From contig JAKSDO010000015.1 in NCBI GenBank assembly GCA_022360055.1, positions 1-42,215 on the forward strand: DNA of 42,215 nucleotides. The letters run 5' to 3'. Both the position numbers and the translations under genes were made by a program. Shown here one piece after another: positions 17,758-23,864 of the stretch; within the stretch, counting starts at the first letter, position 1; each line of letters begins with the position of its first letter. The DNA is from Cytophagales bacterium (GTDB taxonomy: Bacteria; Bacteroidota; Bacteroidia; Cytophagales; Cyclobacteriaceae). Under the pieces are notes generated by a model. That model saw nothing but the letters and a program-made list of their open reading frames with translations. It searched no databases and was not told the DNA's origin.

Positions 17758-19950
17758 TCATCTTACATTGGGAAGCGCGAAGCAATAATATGCATCACCG
17801 GGTTTGGTTTCAGGCTTGCCTCCTCCTCCGGCCGCTATAACGATATATTGTTTGCCATCTACCTCATAGGTGGCAGGAGTTGCATATCCGCCGGCGTCTA
17901 ATTGAAATTCCCAAAGTTGTTGACCATTATTGATATCAAAGGCTCTTATTCTTTCATCCATGGTAGCGGCTATAAACACCAACCCTGATGCGGTGATTAT
18001 TGGTCCGCCCATATTAAAAGTACCGGTGGGGGGTAGGCCACGGGCCTCAAGTTCGGGATAGGTGCCCAATGGGACCTGCCATTTTATTTCACCTTTGTTC
18101 AAGTCAATGGCATTTAGTGTAGCCCAAGGCCTGGTATTTGCCGGAAATCCTTCAGGGTCCTTAAGCGTGCGGTGACCTGTCGCGACGTATGGCACCTGAT
18201 TCGAAAAGCTCATTTTTATTTTATTCGTATCGATTAGCTTATCTTTTCCTTCTTCCCACAAGAAAGCAACCACTGCGTTTTTCTCTTCCCCCGAAAGCGT
18301 GGGAAACTTGGGCATTTGTCCTTTGCCTTCTTGCAGTACGCTCAATACGTCATCTTTGGTCCTTTCTTCCCGGATCTTCCTTAAATTTTCCAGGGATGGA
18401 GAGCCGGGGTTCCTGGGGTTGGCATAGCCGTGGCATACCGAACAGATGCTTTGGTACAAGTGCTGACCGAGGTAGTACTGCGAAATATTTTTTCTTGGAT
18501 TTGATTTCATCATGGAAATCCATTCAACTTCATTGCTTGTATTTACGATCAGTGTGTTGTCATCCGGATGGAATGCAGCGCCTCCCCAATCGGTACCTCC
18601 GTTAAACTGCGGCACAGTGATTGATCCTTCCATACTCGGAGGAATAAAAATATCCCCCAAACGCATGTTTTTTACCCGCTTTCTGATTTCTTCCGCTGCA
18701 ACCGGACTCAAGTCCGTTACATCCTTTTCCGCAAAGGACTGCGTTCCATAGATCAGCGATTTTGGAGGAAAGGGTTGTGTCGGCCATGTTTCTTCGCCCG
18801 GAATATCCGATGGGGGGACCGGCCGTTCTTCGACCGGAAATATCGGTTCTCCGGTTTCCCTGTCCAGAACAAACAGGTGTCCCATTTTGGTGGGCTGAGC
18901 TACCGCATCGATTACTTTACCGCCTTTTTCTATTGTGACCAGATTAGGCTGACAGGGGATATCATAGTCCCAAATGTCGTGGTGAACAACCTGGAAGTGC
19001 CAAATCCTCCGGCCGGTTTCGGCGTTCAGAGCGAGAATACAATTACCAAAAAGATTTTTCCCTTTTCTGTCCCCTCCCCAATGGTCATAGGTCGGCGACC
19101 CTGTGCCACAAAAAACGATCCCCCGTTCTTCATCCAGCGTAAAACCTCCCCAGGCATTTGCCCCTCCGGTTCTTTTCCAGGCATCCTCCGGCCAAGTTTC
19201 ATATCCAAATTCTCCGGGATGAGGGATGGTATGAAAAATCCACGCCATTTCGCCGGTTTTCACGCGATAAGCCCTGATGTGACCCGGAGCGGCAGGAGAT
19301 GGCCCTTCTCCCAGAGTAGTACCCATAATAATCAGATCTCTGTAGACGATTCCCGGAGTAGCAGCAGTAATCCATGTAAAATTCACATCCCTTCCCAGCC
19401 CTTCATAAAGATCAACCTTGCCCGAATCGGCAAATGACTCGATCAGCAGACCACTGTCAGGATTAATGCAATAAAGGTTTGATCCCGCCACATAGAACAA
19501 TCGTTGTTGCATGCCATCCGACCAATAAGTCACGCCTCGATTTACACCATAAGCACTTTCCCCGTCAAACGGATCAAATTTCCAAATTTCCCGGCCGGAG
19601 GCCGCATCCAATGCAATCACCTTCAGTCCGGGAGATGTAATAAACATTTTATCCCCCACTACAATGGGATTGCACTCAATTGTAGTTCTCGGAGCCTCCC
19701 GCATATCCCCGGTCCGATAAATCCAGGCGACCTCCAGGTCTTTCGCGTTCTCTTTATTTATTTGTCTTAAAGATGAGAACTTAGTCCCTTTAGGATCTCC
19801 GCTATAGACTTCCCATGTCTTATAATCCTTATTCGATTCCTGACAATTTGTAAATAAAAAAATGGAAGCGAGTGTAAATGATATCGTAATACTTCCGTGA
19901 AATTTGAATGAAACATTCCCTTTCAACGATTCAAAATACCTTGTTTTCAT
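17758..19950 (-). CDS. Lipoprotein PQQ-dependent dehydrogenase with inserted cytochrome c domain
   Basis: This 730-residue protein has a lipoprotein-type signal (lipobox FTNC, Cys36), so it is likely anchored in a membrane facing the periplasm. It shows a quinoprotein eight-bladed propeller: GDPKGTKFSSLRQINKENAK, VIALDAASGREIWKFDP, and HFQVVHHDIWDYDIPCQPNL as in glucose/alcohol dehydrogenases. Between propeller parts it carries a heme domain with CSVCH (503-507) and a probable distal Met546 in GKGQMPKFP. The heme insertion would pass electrons from PQQ to the respiratory chain. The substrate is probably a sugar or alcohol. No PQQ synthesis genes are in the window. It lies on the opposite strand from the sugar porter. 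Confidence 0.93.
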   Translation of the reverse strand: MKTRYFESLKGNVSFKFHGSITISFTLASIFLFTNCQESNKDYKTWEVYSGDPKGTKFSSLRQINKENAKDLEVAWIYRTGDMREAPRTTIECNPIVVGDKMFITSPGLKVIALDAASGREIWKFDPFDGESAYGVNRGVTYWSDGMQQRLFYVAGSNLYCINPDSGLLIESFADSGKVDLYEGLGRDVNFTWITAATPGIVYRDLIIMGTTLGEGPSPAAPGHIRAYRVKTGEMAWIFHTIPHPGEFGYETWPEDAWKRTGGANAWGGFTLDEERGIVFCGTGSPTYDHWGGDRKGKNLFGNCILALNAETGRRIWHFQVVHHDIWDYDIPCQPNLVTIEKGGKVIDAVAQPTKMGHLFVLDRETGEPIFPVEERPVPPSDIPGEETWPTQPFPPKSLIYGTQSFAEKDVTDLSPVAAEEIRKRVKNMRLGDIFIPPSMEGSITVPQFNGGTDWGGAAFHPDDNTLIVNTSNEVEWISMMKSNPRKNISQYYLGQHLYQSICSVCHGYANPRNPGSPSLENLRKIREERTKDDVLSVLQEGKGQMPKFPTLSGEEKNAVVAFLWEEGKDKLIDTNKIKMSFSNQVPYVATGHRTLKDPEGFPANTRPWATLNAIDLNKGEIKWQVPLGTYPELEARGLPPTGTFNMGGPIITASGLVFIAATMDERIRAFDINNGQQLWEFQLDAGGYATPATYEVDGKQYIVIAAGGGGKPETKPGDAYYCFALPNVR

Positions 19951-20498: not shown

Positions 20499-22730
20499 AT
20501 GTCAGAAAATAAGATCAATTGCATAGGAGTGATGACCAGCGGAGGTGATGCTCCAGGAATGAATGCGGCTGTTCGGGCTGTCGTAAAAACTGCTCTAATC
20601 CACGGCATCGATGTTTATGCCTTTTACCAGGGATACCAGGGAATGGTCGACGGAGGCGCCATGATAAAAAAAATGGATTGGGGATCAGTCGGAGGTATCT
20701 TACATAAAGGAGGAACTGTCATCGGAACCGCGAGGTGTATGGAGTTCCGGAAGCGCGAAGGCCGGTTGCGGGCAGCACTCAATTTGATTGAAAGAAAAAT
20801 AGATAACCTGGTGGTCATCGGAGGCGATGGAAGCCTGACGGGAGCAAATCTGTTCAGTGAGGAATGGCCTTCACTTACGGAGGAATTATTAAAGAAGAAA
20901 AAGATTTCAAAAGCGCAAGCCCTGAGCCATCCGAAACTTAGTATTGTAGGATTGGTCGGTTCGATAGATAATGATCTTTCCGGTACGGATATGACCATCG
21001 GTGCCGATACGGCACTCCGGCGAATATCCGAAGCTTTGGATGCCATTGATAGTACAGCTTCCAGTCATCAACGTACTTTTGTGGTCGAGGTGATGGGAAG
21101 AAATTGCGGTTACCTCGCGTTGATCAGCGCTTTGTCATCCGGTGCGGATTATGTTTTCATCCCGGAACGACCTCCTGAATCGGACGATTGGGCCGAAGAG
21201 TTATGTGAAAAAATTACCACCAACAAAAAAGCGGGAAAGAAAAAAAGCCTGGTGCTCATTGCCGAAGGAGCAAAAGATAAAAATGGCACACCGATCCGAA
21301 GTTATGACGTAGTCGATGAACTGAAGAAAAGAATAAACGAAGATGCGAGGTTAACCATCCTTGGTCATGTGCAACGAGGAGGCGCACCAACCGCATTTGA
21401 TCGATACATGAGTACGGTATTGGGCTATGCCGCCGTCAGGTATCTTCTCGAAAAGGATGATGATCAATCAAAGATTATCGCACTGCAAAAGAATAAGGTC
21501 AAGGTGATCCCCTTAATGGAGAGCATTAAAAACACACAATCGATAGCCGATCTGATTGCCGGAAAAGAGTTTGATAAGACCATTCGACTGCGCGGTGGAA
21601 GCTTTAGGGAATCGTTGGAAACATTTAACACCTTGAGCAATGCAAAGCCAAGCAAAAAACGGGATAAAGATCATGCATTAAATATCCTTGTGATGAATTC
21701 GGGAACTTTAGCTCCGGGAATGAATACCGCTGTGCGCACTGCCGTACGGATCGGATTGGATAAAGGCCATAACGTATTCGGAGTCCGAAACGGATTCAAA
21801 GGATTAATTGAGAACCACATCGAGGAGTTCAAGTGGATGGATGTGGAAGATTGGACTTCTGTCGGGGGTTCGGAATTGGGGACCAACAGGAAGCAGCCAA
21901 AGAATCGCGACTTCTATGAGATATCCAAAAACCTGGAGTCCGGAAACATTCACGCAATTCTTATCATTGGCGGTATTTACAGCTATGCCAGTGCGCTGGA
22001 TTTGTTGAAAAAGAGAAGTGAATTTCCGGCATTTGATATTCCCATTGTCTGTCTCCCGGCCAGCATTAATAATAATCTGCCCGGCACTGATTTTAGTGTG
22101 GGCTCGGATACCGCTCTGAATAGCATAATTGAGGCCGTAGATAAAATTAAAGAATCAGCCGTAGCAAGTAACAGGGTTTTTGTAGTGGAAGTAATGGGGA
22201 GGTATTGCGGATTTTTGGCAATGCTCAGTGGTTTGGCGACGGGTGCTGAGCGGATATATCTTCACGAGAAAGGGTTGTCTTTGCAGGATTTACAGGATGA
22301 TGTAAATATGTTTAAAAAAGCCTTTGAAGAAGGTAAACGTATGGGCCTGGTGGTAAAAAGCGAATATGCGAACAAGATATATACCACCCCGTTTATCAGC
22401 GCATTGTATGAAGAAGACGGAGGAGATATCTTTGACGTGCGACAAACCATCCTGGGGCACGTACAGCAGGGAGGCAATCCAAGCCCCTTCGATAGATCCA
22501 TCGCAATAAAGATGGCCGTTAAGGCGATGGATTTTCTAGTTAAAAAAGCCACTAAAAATAAGCATGACGTGGTGAGCATCGGACTTCACGGCGGGCATCT
22601 CGATTATCAGAATATTGAGGATTTGGAAAGACTGGTGGATGTAAATTACCACCGCCCCAAAGATCAATGGTGGACGAAACTTGAGCAGATTATAAACTTA
22701 TTTGGCAGGTCGTCCGCAAAAAAGAGCTAA
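20499..22730 (+). CDS. pfkA: Tandem 6-phosphofructokinase of the eukaryotic layout
   Basis: ATG at 20499 (743 residues); 24 upstream in-frame codons are not family-like. Two PFK domains are fused. The N half (about 1-370) is catalytic: TSGGDAPGMN (13-22), GGDGS (108-112), GSIDND with Asp157 and Asp159, MGR (199-201), GHVQRGG. The C half (about 393-743) keeps the fold but has NSGTLAPGMN (400-409), IGGIYSY in place of GGDGS, and ASINNN (521-526) in place of the catalytic SIDND, while MGR and GHVQQGGNPSPFDR remain. This is the animal/fungal PFK-1 plan in which the C half became regulatory, and it includes the eukaryotic-type ending PKDQWWTKLEQI. It makes fructose 1,6-bisphosphate in glycolysis. 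A GH3 gene follows 21 bases later. Effectors are unknown. Confidence 0.95.
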   Translation: MSENKINCIGVMTSGGDAPGMNAAVRAVVKTALIHGIDVYAFYQGYQGMVDGGAMIKKMDWGSVGGILHKGGTVIGTARCMEFRKREGRLRAALNLIERKIDNLVVIGGDGSLTGANLFSEEWPSLTEELLKKKKISKAQALSHPKLSIVGLVGSIDNDLSGTDMTIGADTALRRISEALDAIDSTASSHQRTFVVEVMGRNCGYLALISALSSGADYVFIPERPPESDDWAEELCEKITTNKKAGKKKSLVLIAEGAKDKNGTPIRSYDVVDELKKRINEDARLTILGHVQRGGAPTAFDRYMSTVLGYAAVRYLLEKDDDQSKIIALQKNKVKVIPLMESIKNTQSIADLIAGKEFDKTIRLRGGSFRESLETFNTLSNAKPSKKRDKDHALNILVMNSGTLAPGMNTAVRTAVRIGLDKGHNVFGVRNGFKGLIENHIEEFKWMDVEDWTSVGGSELGTNRKQPKNRDFYEISKNLESGNIHAILIIGGIYSYASALDLLKKRSEFPAFDIPIVCLPASINNNLPGTDFSVGSDTALNSIIEAVDKIKESAVASNRVFVVEVMGRYCGFLAMLSGLATGAERIYLHEKGLSLQDLQDDVNMFKKAFEEGKRMGLVVKSEYANKIYTTPFISALYEEDGGDIFDVRQTILGHVQQGGNPSPFDRSIAIKMAVKAMDFLVKKATKNKHDVVSIGLHGGHLDYQNIEDLERLVDVNYHRPKDQWWTKLEQIINLFGRSSAKKS

Positions 22731-22751
22731 GGTGAATTTACTGTTTCTCAA

Positions 22752-23864
22752 ATGTTGATTCGACTCACCCTTATATGGTTATTCGTATTTACCGGTTGTA
22801 AACCCGGGGAAAAAAAAGAACCGGAGAGAATACCTTCGTATTCTTTGAGTGATTTTTATAGCAATAACCTTAAGCTGGATCGTTATGTAGATTCCGTATT
22901 TCAGAGACTTCCTCCAAAATTGCGCATCGCTCAAATGATCATTGTGGCCGGAGGCGAGCACGGAAAACCGACATCGACCATAGAAAAACTTATTAGAGAT
23001 CGTGTCGTCGGCGGAGTTTTAATGCTTTCCGGAGAAAAAGAAAATTTGGTCAAATTGATCCGTCGTTTTGATAGCCTGTCAATCCAATATGGGAATCTGC
23101 CTTTGATTTTTAGTTCGGATGCGGAGCCAAGTTTATTTAACAGGAAGATTGAAGGCACCCAATCTGTTCCGAAAACAATTACTTTGAAAACTGAGGCGAA
23201 TTGTGACTCCGTTGCCCGGATAATCAGTGGAGAATTGCTTGAAATGGGGATTTCTCACAATTATGCTCCGGTGGTCGACGTGAGTCCCGATAACGCGGCC
23301 ATCACAAATCGGACGTTTGGCTATGACAGCGCTTCAGTGGTCGGACTATCGGCCGCCTTTATAAAATCTTCGCAAGAAATGGAAGTTGCAGCAACCGCAA
23401 AGCATTTTCCGGGTCACGGACTTGTACGTGGAGACACACATAACCGACTGGTTACAATTGACGGAGAATTGAAGGAGGTAAACCATTATATACCTCTGAT
23501 CGAACAGGGGGTGATCAGCATCATGGTCGGACATATCGCTGTAATCAATAACGCCGAACACGGCACGAATGGATTGCCGGCGAGCTGTTCCGGAAATCTC
23601 GTGACCGATCTTTTGAAGAAGGATCTGGGGTTTAACGGAATCGTAATAACCGATGCTATGAATATGGGGGCTTTGCGCAACATAAAAGATGCTTCGTTCA
23701 TGGCGGTACGGGCCGGCTGCGATATGATCCTAATGGAGCCGGATGAAATGAAACTTGTTGAAGATATTCTTAGAAGCTACAGGGACGATTTGTTATTTAA
23801 ATCTCAAATCGACAATTCTGTGAGGAAAATTCTACGCCTGAAAGTTTGTTTGAACAGAATATAA
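22752..23864 (+). CDS. Glycoside hydrolase family 3 lipoprotein (NagZ-like beta-N-acetylhexosaminidase)
   Basis: This 370-residue protein has lipobox FTGC (Cys16). The single GH3 TIM barrel has KHFPGHG (217-223), the NagZ-type DTH loop (Asp228, His230) that supplies acid/base catalysis, and the nucleophile Asp301 in VITDAMNMGA. There is no second GH3 domain, as in NagZ enzymes that remove beta-1,4-linked N-acetylglucosamine from peptidoglycan fragments. The lipid anchor suggests action in the periplasm and not in the cytoplasm as in enterobacteria. It starts 21 bases after pfkA, so the two are probably co-transcribed. No terminator is visible after it. Confidence 0.9.
   Translation: MLIRLTLIWLFVFTGCKPGEKKEPERIPSYSLSDFYSNNLKLDRYVDSVFQRLPPKLRIAQMIIVAGGEHGKPTSTIEKLIRDRVVGGVLMLSGEKENLVKLIRRFDSLSIQYGNLPLIFSSDAEPSLFNRKIEGTQSVPKTITLKTEANCDSVARIISGELLEMGISHNYAPVVDVSPDNAAITNRTFGYDSASVVGLSAAFIKSSQEMEVAATAKHFPGHGLVRGDTHNRLVTIDGELKEVNHYIPLIEQGVISIMVGHIAVINNAEHGTNGLPASCSGNLVTDLLKKDLGFNGIVITDAMNMGALRNIKDASFMAVRAGCDMILMEPDEMKLVEDILRSYRDDLLFKSQIDNSVRKILRLKVCLNRI

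What the first reader, a model, noticed from the sequence alone, without database searches (positions are those of the whole stretch)
20499..22730. A bacterial phosphofructokinase with the full eukaryotic two-domain design
Seen: two fused PFK domains in 743 residues. The N half has intact GGDGS, SIDND and MGR. The C half has ASINNN and IGGIYSY at the matching catalytic places, yet keeps GTDFSVGSDTALN, MGRYCG and GHVQQGGNPSPFDR. Known: animal and fungal PFK-1 arose by duplication, with the C half turned into an allosteric site; the N-half stretch GLVGSIDND...GTDMTIG and the ending PKxQWW are like human PFK. Inferred: this gene either shares the eukaryotic duplication (ancestral or transferred) or repeats it, and the C half may bind an allosteric ligand. 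It could be a bacterial model for the origin of fructose 2,6-bisphosphate control.
Basis: partly seen in the sequence, partly recalled or inferred. Interest (0 to 1): 0.78.

Follow-up and report, generated by a model that had tools for sequence, protein, structure and literature searches.

The report
Eukaryotic-type phosphofructokinase in Bacteroidota bacteria
A small group of Bacteroidota bacteria carries the same doubled glycolysis enzyme that animals and fungi use, sharing the very same ancient gene doubling, apparently in place of the usual bacterial enzyme; its second half keeps a sugar-binding pocket but not a working active site.

Summary
In detail: 20499-22730 (+) encodes a 743-aa, two-domain phosphofructokinase. 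It passes NCBIfam's eukaryotic PFK-1 model (993.7 bits, cut-off 708.4) and aligns along nearly its whole length with mammalian and yeast PFK-1. Trees of the halves put bacterial N with eukaryotic N and bacterial C with eukaryotic C (each 100/100); an independent bacterial duplication is rejected (p-AU 4e-60). So the duplication is shared. The bacterial clade falls beside animal plus yeast; direction of transfer is unresolved, as no other eukaryotes were available. Contamination is very unlikely: 7 of 7 held genomes of the genus carry it, 12 of 295 sampled in its family (5 of 84 genera), with one conserved neighbour in 7 of 10 stretches. Outside the family, 0 of 386 genomes in the phylum draw have it. 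The short pfkA of 7 of 8 non-carriers tested was found in 0 of 12 carriers. The catalytic site is intact in N; C lost the nucleotide site but keeps the sugar-phosphate pocket. Fructose 2,6-bisphosphate control is unsupported: no convincing PFK-2 gene. Best reading: an old interdomain transfer that replaced native pfkA.

The parts
20499..22730 (+). two-domain, eukaryotic-type 6-phosphofructokinase (743 aa)
   Evidence: orthologues in 7 of 7 held genomes of the genus
20499..21674 (+). N half (residues 1-392): predicted ATP-dependent catalytic domain
   Evidence: 22 of 22 checked active-site positions (list recalled) identical to rabbit PFKM; N halves of bacteria and eukaryotes form one clade 100/100
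20820..20834 (+). GGDGS (108-112), nucleotide/Mg loop of the N half
20961..20975 (+). SIDND (155-159), catalytic Asp157
21675..22730 (+). C half (residues 393-743): predicted non-catalytic, sugar-phosphate effector domain
   Evidence: C halves form one clade with eukaryotic C halves 100/100; conservation pattern
21966..21986 (+). IGGIYSY (490-496), decayed counterpart of GGDGS
   Evidence: positions variable among the 12 bacterial sequences
22059..22076 (+). ASINNN (521-526), counterpart of GSIDND with both Asp replaced by Asn
22194..22202 (+). MGR (566-568) of the C half; the third position is Arg in 10 of 12 bacterial C halves (one Cys, one Lys) and Gly in the 5 eukaryotic ones used
22455..22475 (+). 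GHVQQGG (653-659), retained phosphate/sugar pocket of the C half
22656..22673 (+). PKDQWW end motif, shared with rabbit PFKM (PKEQWW) and not with the four yeast sequences
22752..23864 (+). glycoside hydrolase family 3 gene directly downstream (21-base gap); conserved neighbour, not part of the enzyme
   Evidence: PF00933; homologue downstream of the long pfk in 7 of 10 fetched stretches, 4 genera

Best explanation
The gene encodes a true member of the eukaryotic PFK-1 family: an ATP-dependent 6-phosphofructokinase made of two fused PFK domains that descend from the same duplication as animal and fungal PFK-1. The N half catalyses F6P + ATP -> FBP + ADP (inferred from intact residues). The C half has lost the nucleotide site and the catalytic Asp but keeps the sugar-phosphate pocket, and most likely acts as an allosteric or structural sugar-phosphate site; with no PFK-2 found, FBP or F6P is a likelier ligand than fructose 2,6-bisphosphate (inferred). 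An ancestor of one sub-clade of a Bacteroidota family most likely obtained the gene once, from a eukaryotic lineage at or outside the animal-fungal split; it settled at a new locus beside a GH3 gene and the native short pfkA was lost (pattern shown, order of events and direction inferred).
For: Family model 993.7 bits vs cut-off 708.4. Identity 47.9% to rabbit PFKM and 42.4-45.0% to four yeast subunits, about the level of rabbit vs yeast (43.4-45.9%). Trees: bactN+eukN 100/100, bactC+eukC 100/100 with 7 bacterial long proteins and with 12; independent duplication rejected, lnL 176 lower, p-AU 4e-60. Vertical inheritance: 7 of 7 held genomes of the genus, 12 of 295 sampled in the family, GH3 homologue downstream in 7 of 10 fetched stretches, carriers clustered on a quick rpoB tree of 30 chosen genomes (2 changes; shuffled mean 9.1, 0 of 500 as low). 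Replacement: the 325-336 aa pfkA type in 0 of 12 carriers, 7 of 8 non-carriers; in 6 non-carriers examined that gene lies among other neighbours. Rarity outside the family: 0 of 386, 0 of 178, 0 of 386, overlapping draws. Function: N-half active site intact; C-half sugar positions 11 of 15 invariant in the 12 bacterial sequences (8 of 10000 random sets as conserved), C-half nucleotide positions 1 of 5 (8495 of 10000). The F regulatory sites of human PFKP are reported to hold FBP in structure 4XZ2 (PMC12203962, section 7).
Against: Donor and direction are not shown. The bacterial clade falls outside rabbit+yeast (97/87 N, 99/90 C), but a sister relation to rabbit is not firmly rejected (p 0.169 N, 0.047 C; 0.053 concatenated), nor one to yeasts (0.051). 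No non-opisthokont eukaryote was in any tree. Three of the 12 carriers are under 90% complete, so absence of pfkA there is weak. Four carriers (G000, G910, G913, G989) hold another, distinct 342-352 aa PFK and 10 of 12 a 411-435 aa one, so the long enzyme is not the only PFK in most carriers. G910 also has a cut-off PFK frame and a PFK-GH130 frame. The Arg matching PFKM 735 is not kept in place in most (an Arg sits one residue later). One carrier, G989, has Asp at the first C-half catalytic place. No activity or ligand was measured; the structure prediction did not finish.
Confidence: 0.66

Rival explanations
1. Bacteria-to-eukaryote: the duplication arose in a bacterium related to this clade and eukaryotes received the finished two-domain gene.
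For: The bacterial clade is not nested among the eukaryotes sampled. 10 of 12 bacterial C halves have Arg in the MGx motif, as 32 of 39 short PFK rows do, where the 5 eukaryotic C halves have Gly.
Against: The gene is confined in these samples to 5 of 84 genera of one family and was seen in 0 of 386, 0 of 178 and 0 of 386 genomes outside it (overlapping draws). Carriers lack the native pfkA type, as a recipient would. Divergence from the window's protein within the clade is modest (57-80% identity).
Confidence: 0.15
2. Transfer from an animal-side (holozoan) eukaryote after the split from fungi.
For: PKxQWW end and Met at PFKM 573 are shared with rabbit and not with the yeasts; bits higher to mammals than yeasts; p-AU 0.169 for the N half.
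Against: The tree puts bacteria outside rabbit+yeast in both halves; p 0.047 for C, 0.053 concatenated; these groups were named after the tree was seen. The shared end motif may be ancestral and lost in yeasts.
Confidence: 0.15
3. Independent duplication and fusion in bacteria, convergent with eukaryotes.
For: None found.
Against: Rejected by the tree and AU test (lnL 176 lower, p 4e-60).
Confidence: 0.01
4. Contamination: a eukaryotic contig or a mis-binned sequence.
For: The two relatives with public names are metagenome-assembled.
Against: Uninterrupted frame among bacterial genes; present in 7 of 7 held genomes of the genus and in 5 genera with conserved neighbours; gene GC 45.6% vs flanks 42.3%.
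Confidence: 0.01
5. The C half is only a structural scaffold without an effector site.
For: Nucleotide loop and catalytic Asp lost in the window; no convincing PFK-2 found.
Against: Sugar-pocket residues are far more conserved than the C-half background; dN of the C half is lower than that of the N half in 9 of the 10 genus pairs computed, of 21.
Confidence: 0.2

Closest known systems
Animal PFK-1 (rabbit muscle PFKM, PDB 3o8l; best PDB match 4omt, muscle type)
   Same: Two fused PFK domains, 47.9% identity; intact N active site; C half with the sugar pocket kept and nucleotide loop lost; PKxQWW end.
   Different: In a bacterium; ends 7 residues after the position aligned with residue 753, where the 4omt chain has 780, so without most of the C-terminal tail that the review calls T-state stabilising; C half has NNN for SNN and MGR for MGG; no convincing PFK-2 gene found.
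Yeast PFK-1 alpha and beta subunits (PDB 3o8o, 3opy)
   Same: Same two-domain family; 42.4-45.0% identity.
   Different: No N-terminal extra domain (described for yeast in PMC12203962, section 5); C half has Met at PFKM 573 and the PKxQWW end that the four yeast sequences lack.
Short bacterial ATP-PFK (pfkA; Geobacillus PFK, and the 325-336 aa pfkA of the same family)
   Same: Same catalytic motifs as the N half; N half 38-44% identical to nine short PFKs of that family.
   Different: One domain; in the trees neither half of the long enzymes falls among the short PFKs.

Membership tests
Eukaryotic-type PFK-1 (TIGR02478, two-domain) | Score over the curated cut-off across the whole model | tested here: met
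   993.7 bits vs 708.4, model 2-739 of 744
Eukaryotic-type PFK-1 (TIGR02478, two-domain) | Halves descend from the eukaryotic duplication (N with N, C with C) | tested here: met
   independent duplication rejected
Eukaryotic-type PFK-1 (TIGR02478, two-domain) | Catalytic N half: GGDGS, SIDND, MGR, Arg201, Arg292, Glu264, His298 | tested here: met
   22 of 22 checked positions identical to rabbit PFKM (position list recalled)
Eukaryotic-type PFK-1 (TIGR02478, two-domain) | C half without nucleotide site but with the former F6P pocket (F' site) | tested here: met
   by sequence only. Arg735 is displaced by one residue, Ser530 and Gly575 differ
Eukaryotic-type PFK-1 (TIGR02478, two-domain) | Activation by fructose 2,6-bisphosphate | not testable with these tools
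   needs enzyme assay; no convincing PFK-2 gene in 12 carriers, a search without a positive control over the cut-off
Eukaryotic-type PFK-1 (TIGR02478, two-domain) | C-terminal regulatory tail of about 20 residues (mammalian) | tested here: not met
   protein ends 7 residues after the position aligned with residue 753 of a 780-residue chain; a feature of the mammalian branch, not of the whole family
Short bacterial ATP-PFK (TIGR02482) | Single-domain chain of about 320 residues among the short PFKs | tested here: not met
   743 aa; both halves outside the short PFKs, although the sequence does score over the TIGR02482 cut-off (558 vs 371.35 for the whole protein, several stretches)
PPi-dependent PFK | PPi-type model over cut-off | tested here: not met
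   TIGR02477 112.2 of 587.95 bits, NF041103 209.3 of 550

The most novel reading that the evidence does not exclude
The bacterial enzymes preserve a stage before fructose 2,6-bisphosphate control: a two-domain PFK-1, branching before the animal-fungal split, whose C half already serves as a sugar-phosphate sensor answering to FBP or F6P, so the effector pocket came first and the dedicated signal molecule later.
Probability: 0.2. Interest if true: 0.8.

Novelty: new member of a known kind. Interest (0 to 1): 0.52.

Why it matters
PFK-1 duplication is the textbook case of an active site turned into a regulatory site, usually told as a eukaryotic event. A bacterial clade that shares the same duplication gives an outside branch on which to test when the C half lost catalysis and what it first sensed, in cells without an evident fructose 2,6-bisphosphate system. 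It also looks like an interdomain replacement of a central glycolytic enzyme.

Tried and rejected
Rejected: independent duplication; contamination; in-place replacement at the native pfkA locus (in the 6 non-carriers examined the short pfkA lies among other neighbours; the only window homologues within about 8 kb were weak matches to genes far from pfk, in 2 of the 6); a PFK-2 gene (the G911 hit of 38.4 bits scores better as KTI12; the G977 hit, over the cut-off only with its neighbours in the frame was not followed up).

Led nowhere: viral contigs (none; one PFK-like match of about 900 bases, 38%); plasmids (75 records matched, all under 60% identity; the 15 rows listed are single-gene pfkA-like matches of about 1 kb); Rfam (none). 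dS between genus members was mostly saturated, so no dN/dS; 11 of 21 pairs failed because two minus-strand loci were cut wrongly in the script. Of 36 short-PFK loci in hand 25 went into the first tree; L023 was then dropped for its long branch, and 15 of the remaining 24 served in the concatenated tree. The 411-435 aa PFKs were left out of all trees. The structure prediction accepted was still unfinished. Literature: no paper on a bacterial two-domain eukaryotic-type PFK showed in searches (listings); two main phylogenies (Bapteste 2003; Rada 2015) are not held, so a mention there cannot be excluded. Papers seen: PMC12203962 (abstract, sections 5 and 7, passages), PMC7702303 and PMC1665464 (passages only).

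Full report
Observation. Pfam finds two PFK stretches. NCBIfam's eukaryotic PFK-1 model TIGR02478 scores 993.7 bits against a cut-off of 708.4, end to end. The best PDB matches are mammalian PFK-1 (714-750 bits), then yeast and Pichia PFK-1 (624-673); all others reach at most 247.

It is a bacterial gene. The window is G000:C42, in a genome of 7.5 Mb, 98% complete, 2.5% contamination. All 7 of 7 held genomes of the genus carry the long gene, with 75-80% identity to the window's in the other six, one of them cut by the contig end. Two relatives found by name are Bacteroidetes/Bacteroidia MAGs; by contig place they are genomes G912 and G914 of the genus. In a draw of 295 genomes of the family, 12 genomes and 5 of 84 genera carry it (57-80% identity among the other carriers). 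Outside the family none was found: 0 of 386 in the phylum draw, 0 of 178 in the order draw, 0 of 386 in the class draw, counting family members from the listings; a larger order draw gave only the window's own genome among 390. These draws overlap, and no other phylum could be searched this way: the one scan of 84,980 species used short patterns that find close relatives only, and returned two loci, both in this genus.

Neighbours. A GH3 homologue follows the long pfk in 7 of 10 fetched stretches from 4 genera; of the other three, two end at the contig edge and one (G919) shows no homologue. G977 has homologues of 7, and G918 of 5, of the 9 window genes taken between 22752 and 33714. On a quick rpoB tree of 30 chosen genomes the 11 carriers need 2 changes (shuffled mean 9.1, 0 of 500 as low); deeper forks there are weakly supported. 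This fits one entry into a sub-clade and vertical descent.

Replacement. The usual short pfkA (325-336 aa) is present in 7 of 8 non-carriers tested and in 0 of 12 carriers; three carriers are under 90% complete. Four carriers have a further 342-352 aa PFK of another clade, 10 of 12 also have a 411-435 aa PFK, which in the window's genome is nearest to a PPi-type model, below cut-off, and G910 has two more PFK-like frames. The short pfkA of six non-carriers sits in another neighbourhood; five of the six share a neighbour of about 300 residues. So the long gene sits at a different locus and the old gene is missing; the order of events is inferred.

Origin of the two domains. Halves were cut at residue 393 and aligned with rabbit PFKM and four yeast subunits (letters) and short PFKs. 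With 7 bacterial long proteins (49 rows) and with 12 (58 rows), bacterial N and eukaryotic N form one clade (100/100) and bacterial C and eukaryotic C another (100/100). Holding bacterial N and C together lowers the likelihood by 176 (p-AU 4e-60). The duplication is therefore shared with eukaryotes. Within each half the bacterial clade (100/97 N; 96/83 C) and the rabbit+yeast clade (97/87; 99/90) are sisters. A bacteria+rabbit clade is not firmly rejected (p 0.169 N, 0.047 C; 0.053 concatenated), nor bacteria+yeast (0.051); these groups were named after the tree was seen. No eukaryote other than mammals and two yeasts was at hand, so donor and direction rest on inference: the narrow bacterial distribution and the missing native pfkA favour a eukaryotic donor.

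How it probably works. All 22 checked active-site positions of the window's N half equal those of rabbit PFKM (the position lists for both halves are recalled from UniProt, not fetched). In the C half the positions matching the nucleotide loop vary freely (1 of 5 invariant among 12 bacterial sequences; 8495 of 10000 random sets as conserved), while those matching the sugar pocket are conserved (11 of 15; 8 of 10000). Both catalytic Asp are Asn in the window; one relative (G989) has Asp at the first of these places. [quoted passage not shown] in structure 4XZ2 it holds FBP (PMC12203962, section 7 read in full). The bacterial pocket differs at Ser530 (Asn in 10 of 12) and Gly575 (Arg in 10 of 12), and the Arg matching 735 is displaced: an Arg just after it is nearly invariant. 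A PFK-2 gene was not convincingly found: 0 of 3 genomes at E 0.001; in 12 carriers two genomes had a hit over the Pfam cut-off, of which the stronger is nearer to another P-loop family and the other was not followed. No control genome passed the cut-off, so the negative is uncalibrated. My reading is a C-half sugar-phosphate site that answers to FBP or F6P, or that serves structure only. The protein also lacks most of the C-terminal tail that the review describes as stabilising the T state in human PFKL.

Known or new. The review (sections 5 and 7 read in full, other passages by search) describes the tandem duplication as eukaryotic and reports frequent horizontal transfer of pfk genes to and from bacteria; no bacterial two-domain member is mentioned in what I read. 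My literature searches found no description, but the two main phylogenies are not held, and NCBI's own model would already name such proteins. I file it as a new member of a known kind, in an unexpected host.

Noticed in passing
L074 2411-4663 (+), G910:C98: A 750-aa frame joins a PFK domain (GGIGT in place of GGDGS) to a GH130 glycoside phosphorylase domain. May be a contaminating contig.
   Followed up: partly
window 20499-23864: Long pfk and a GH3 gene lie 21 bases apart on one strand; the order is kept in 4 genera. Why a GH3 enzyme should travel with PFK is unexplained.
   Followed up: partly
G000:C282:80642-81493 (L004) and G000:C14:9165-10130 (L006): The window's genome has two further PFK genes: a 352-aa one of a clade apart from native pfkA and a 415-aa one nearest to a PPi-type model, below cut-off.
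   Followed up: partly
L067 8733-10979 (+), G989: The G989 long PFK has Asp where the other 11 have Asn (10) or Ser (1) at the C-half catalytic place, and Lys for the Arg matching PFKM 471: a differently decayed C half.
   Followed up: no
window 17758-19950 (-): PQQ-dependent dehydrogenase with a cytochrome c domain next to the pfk; a homologue lies there in two genus relatives (L053, L072).
   Followed up: no
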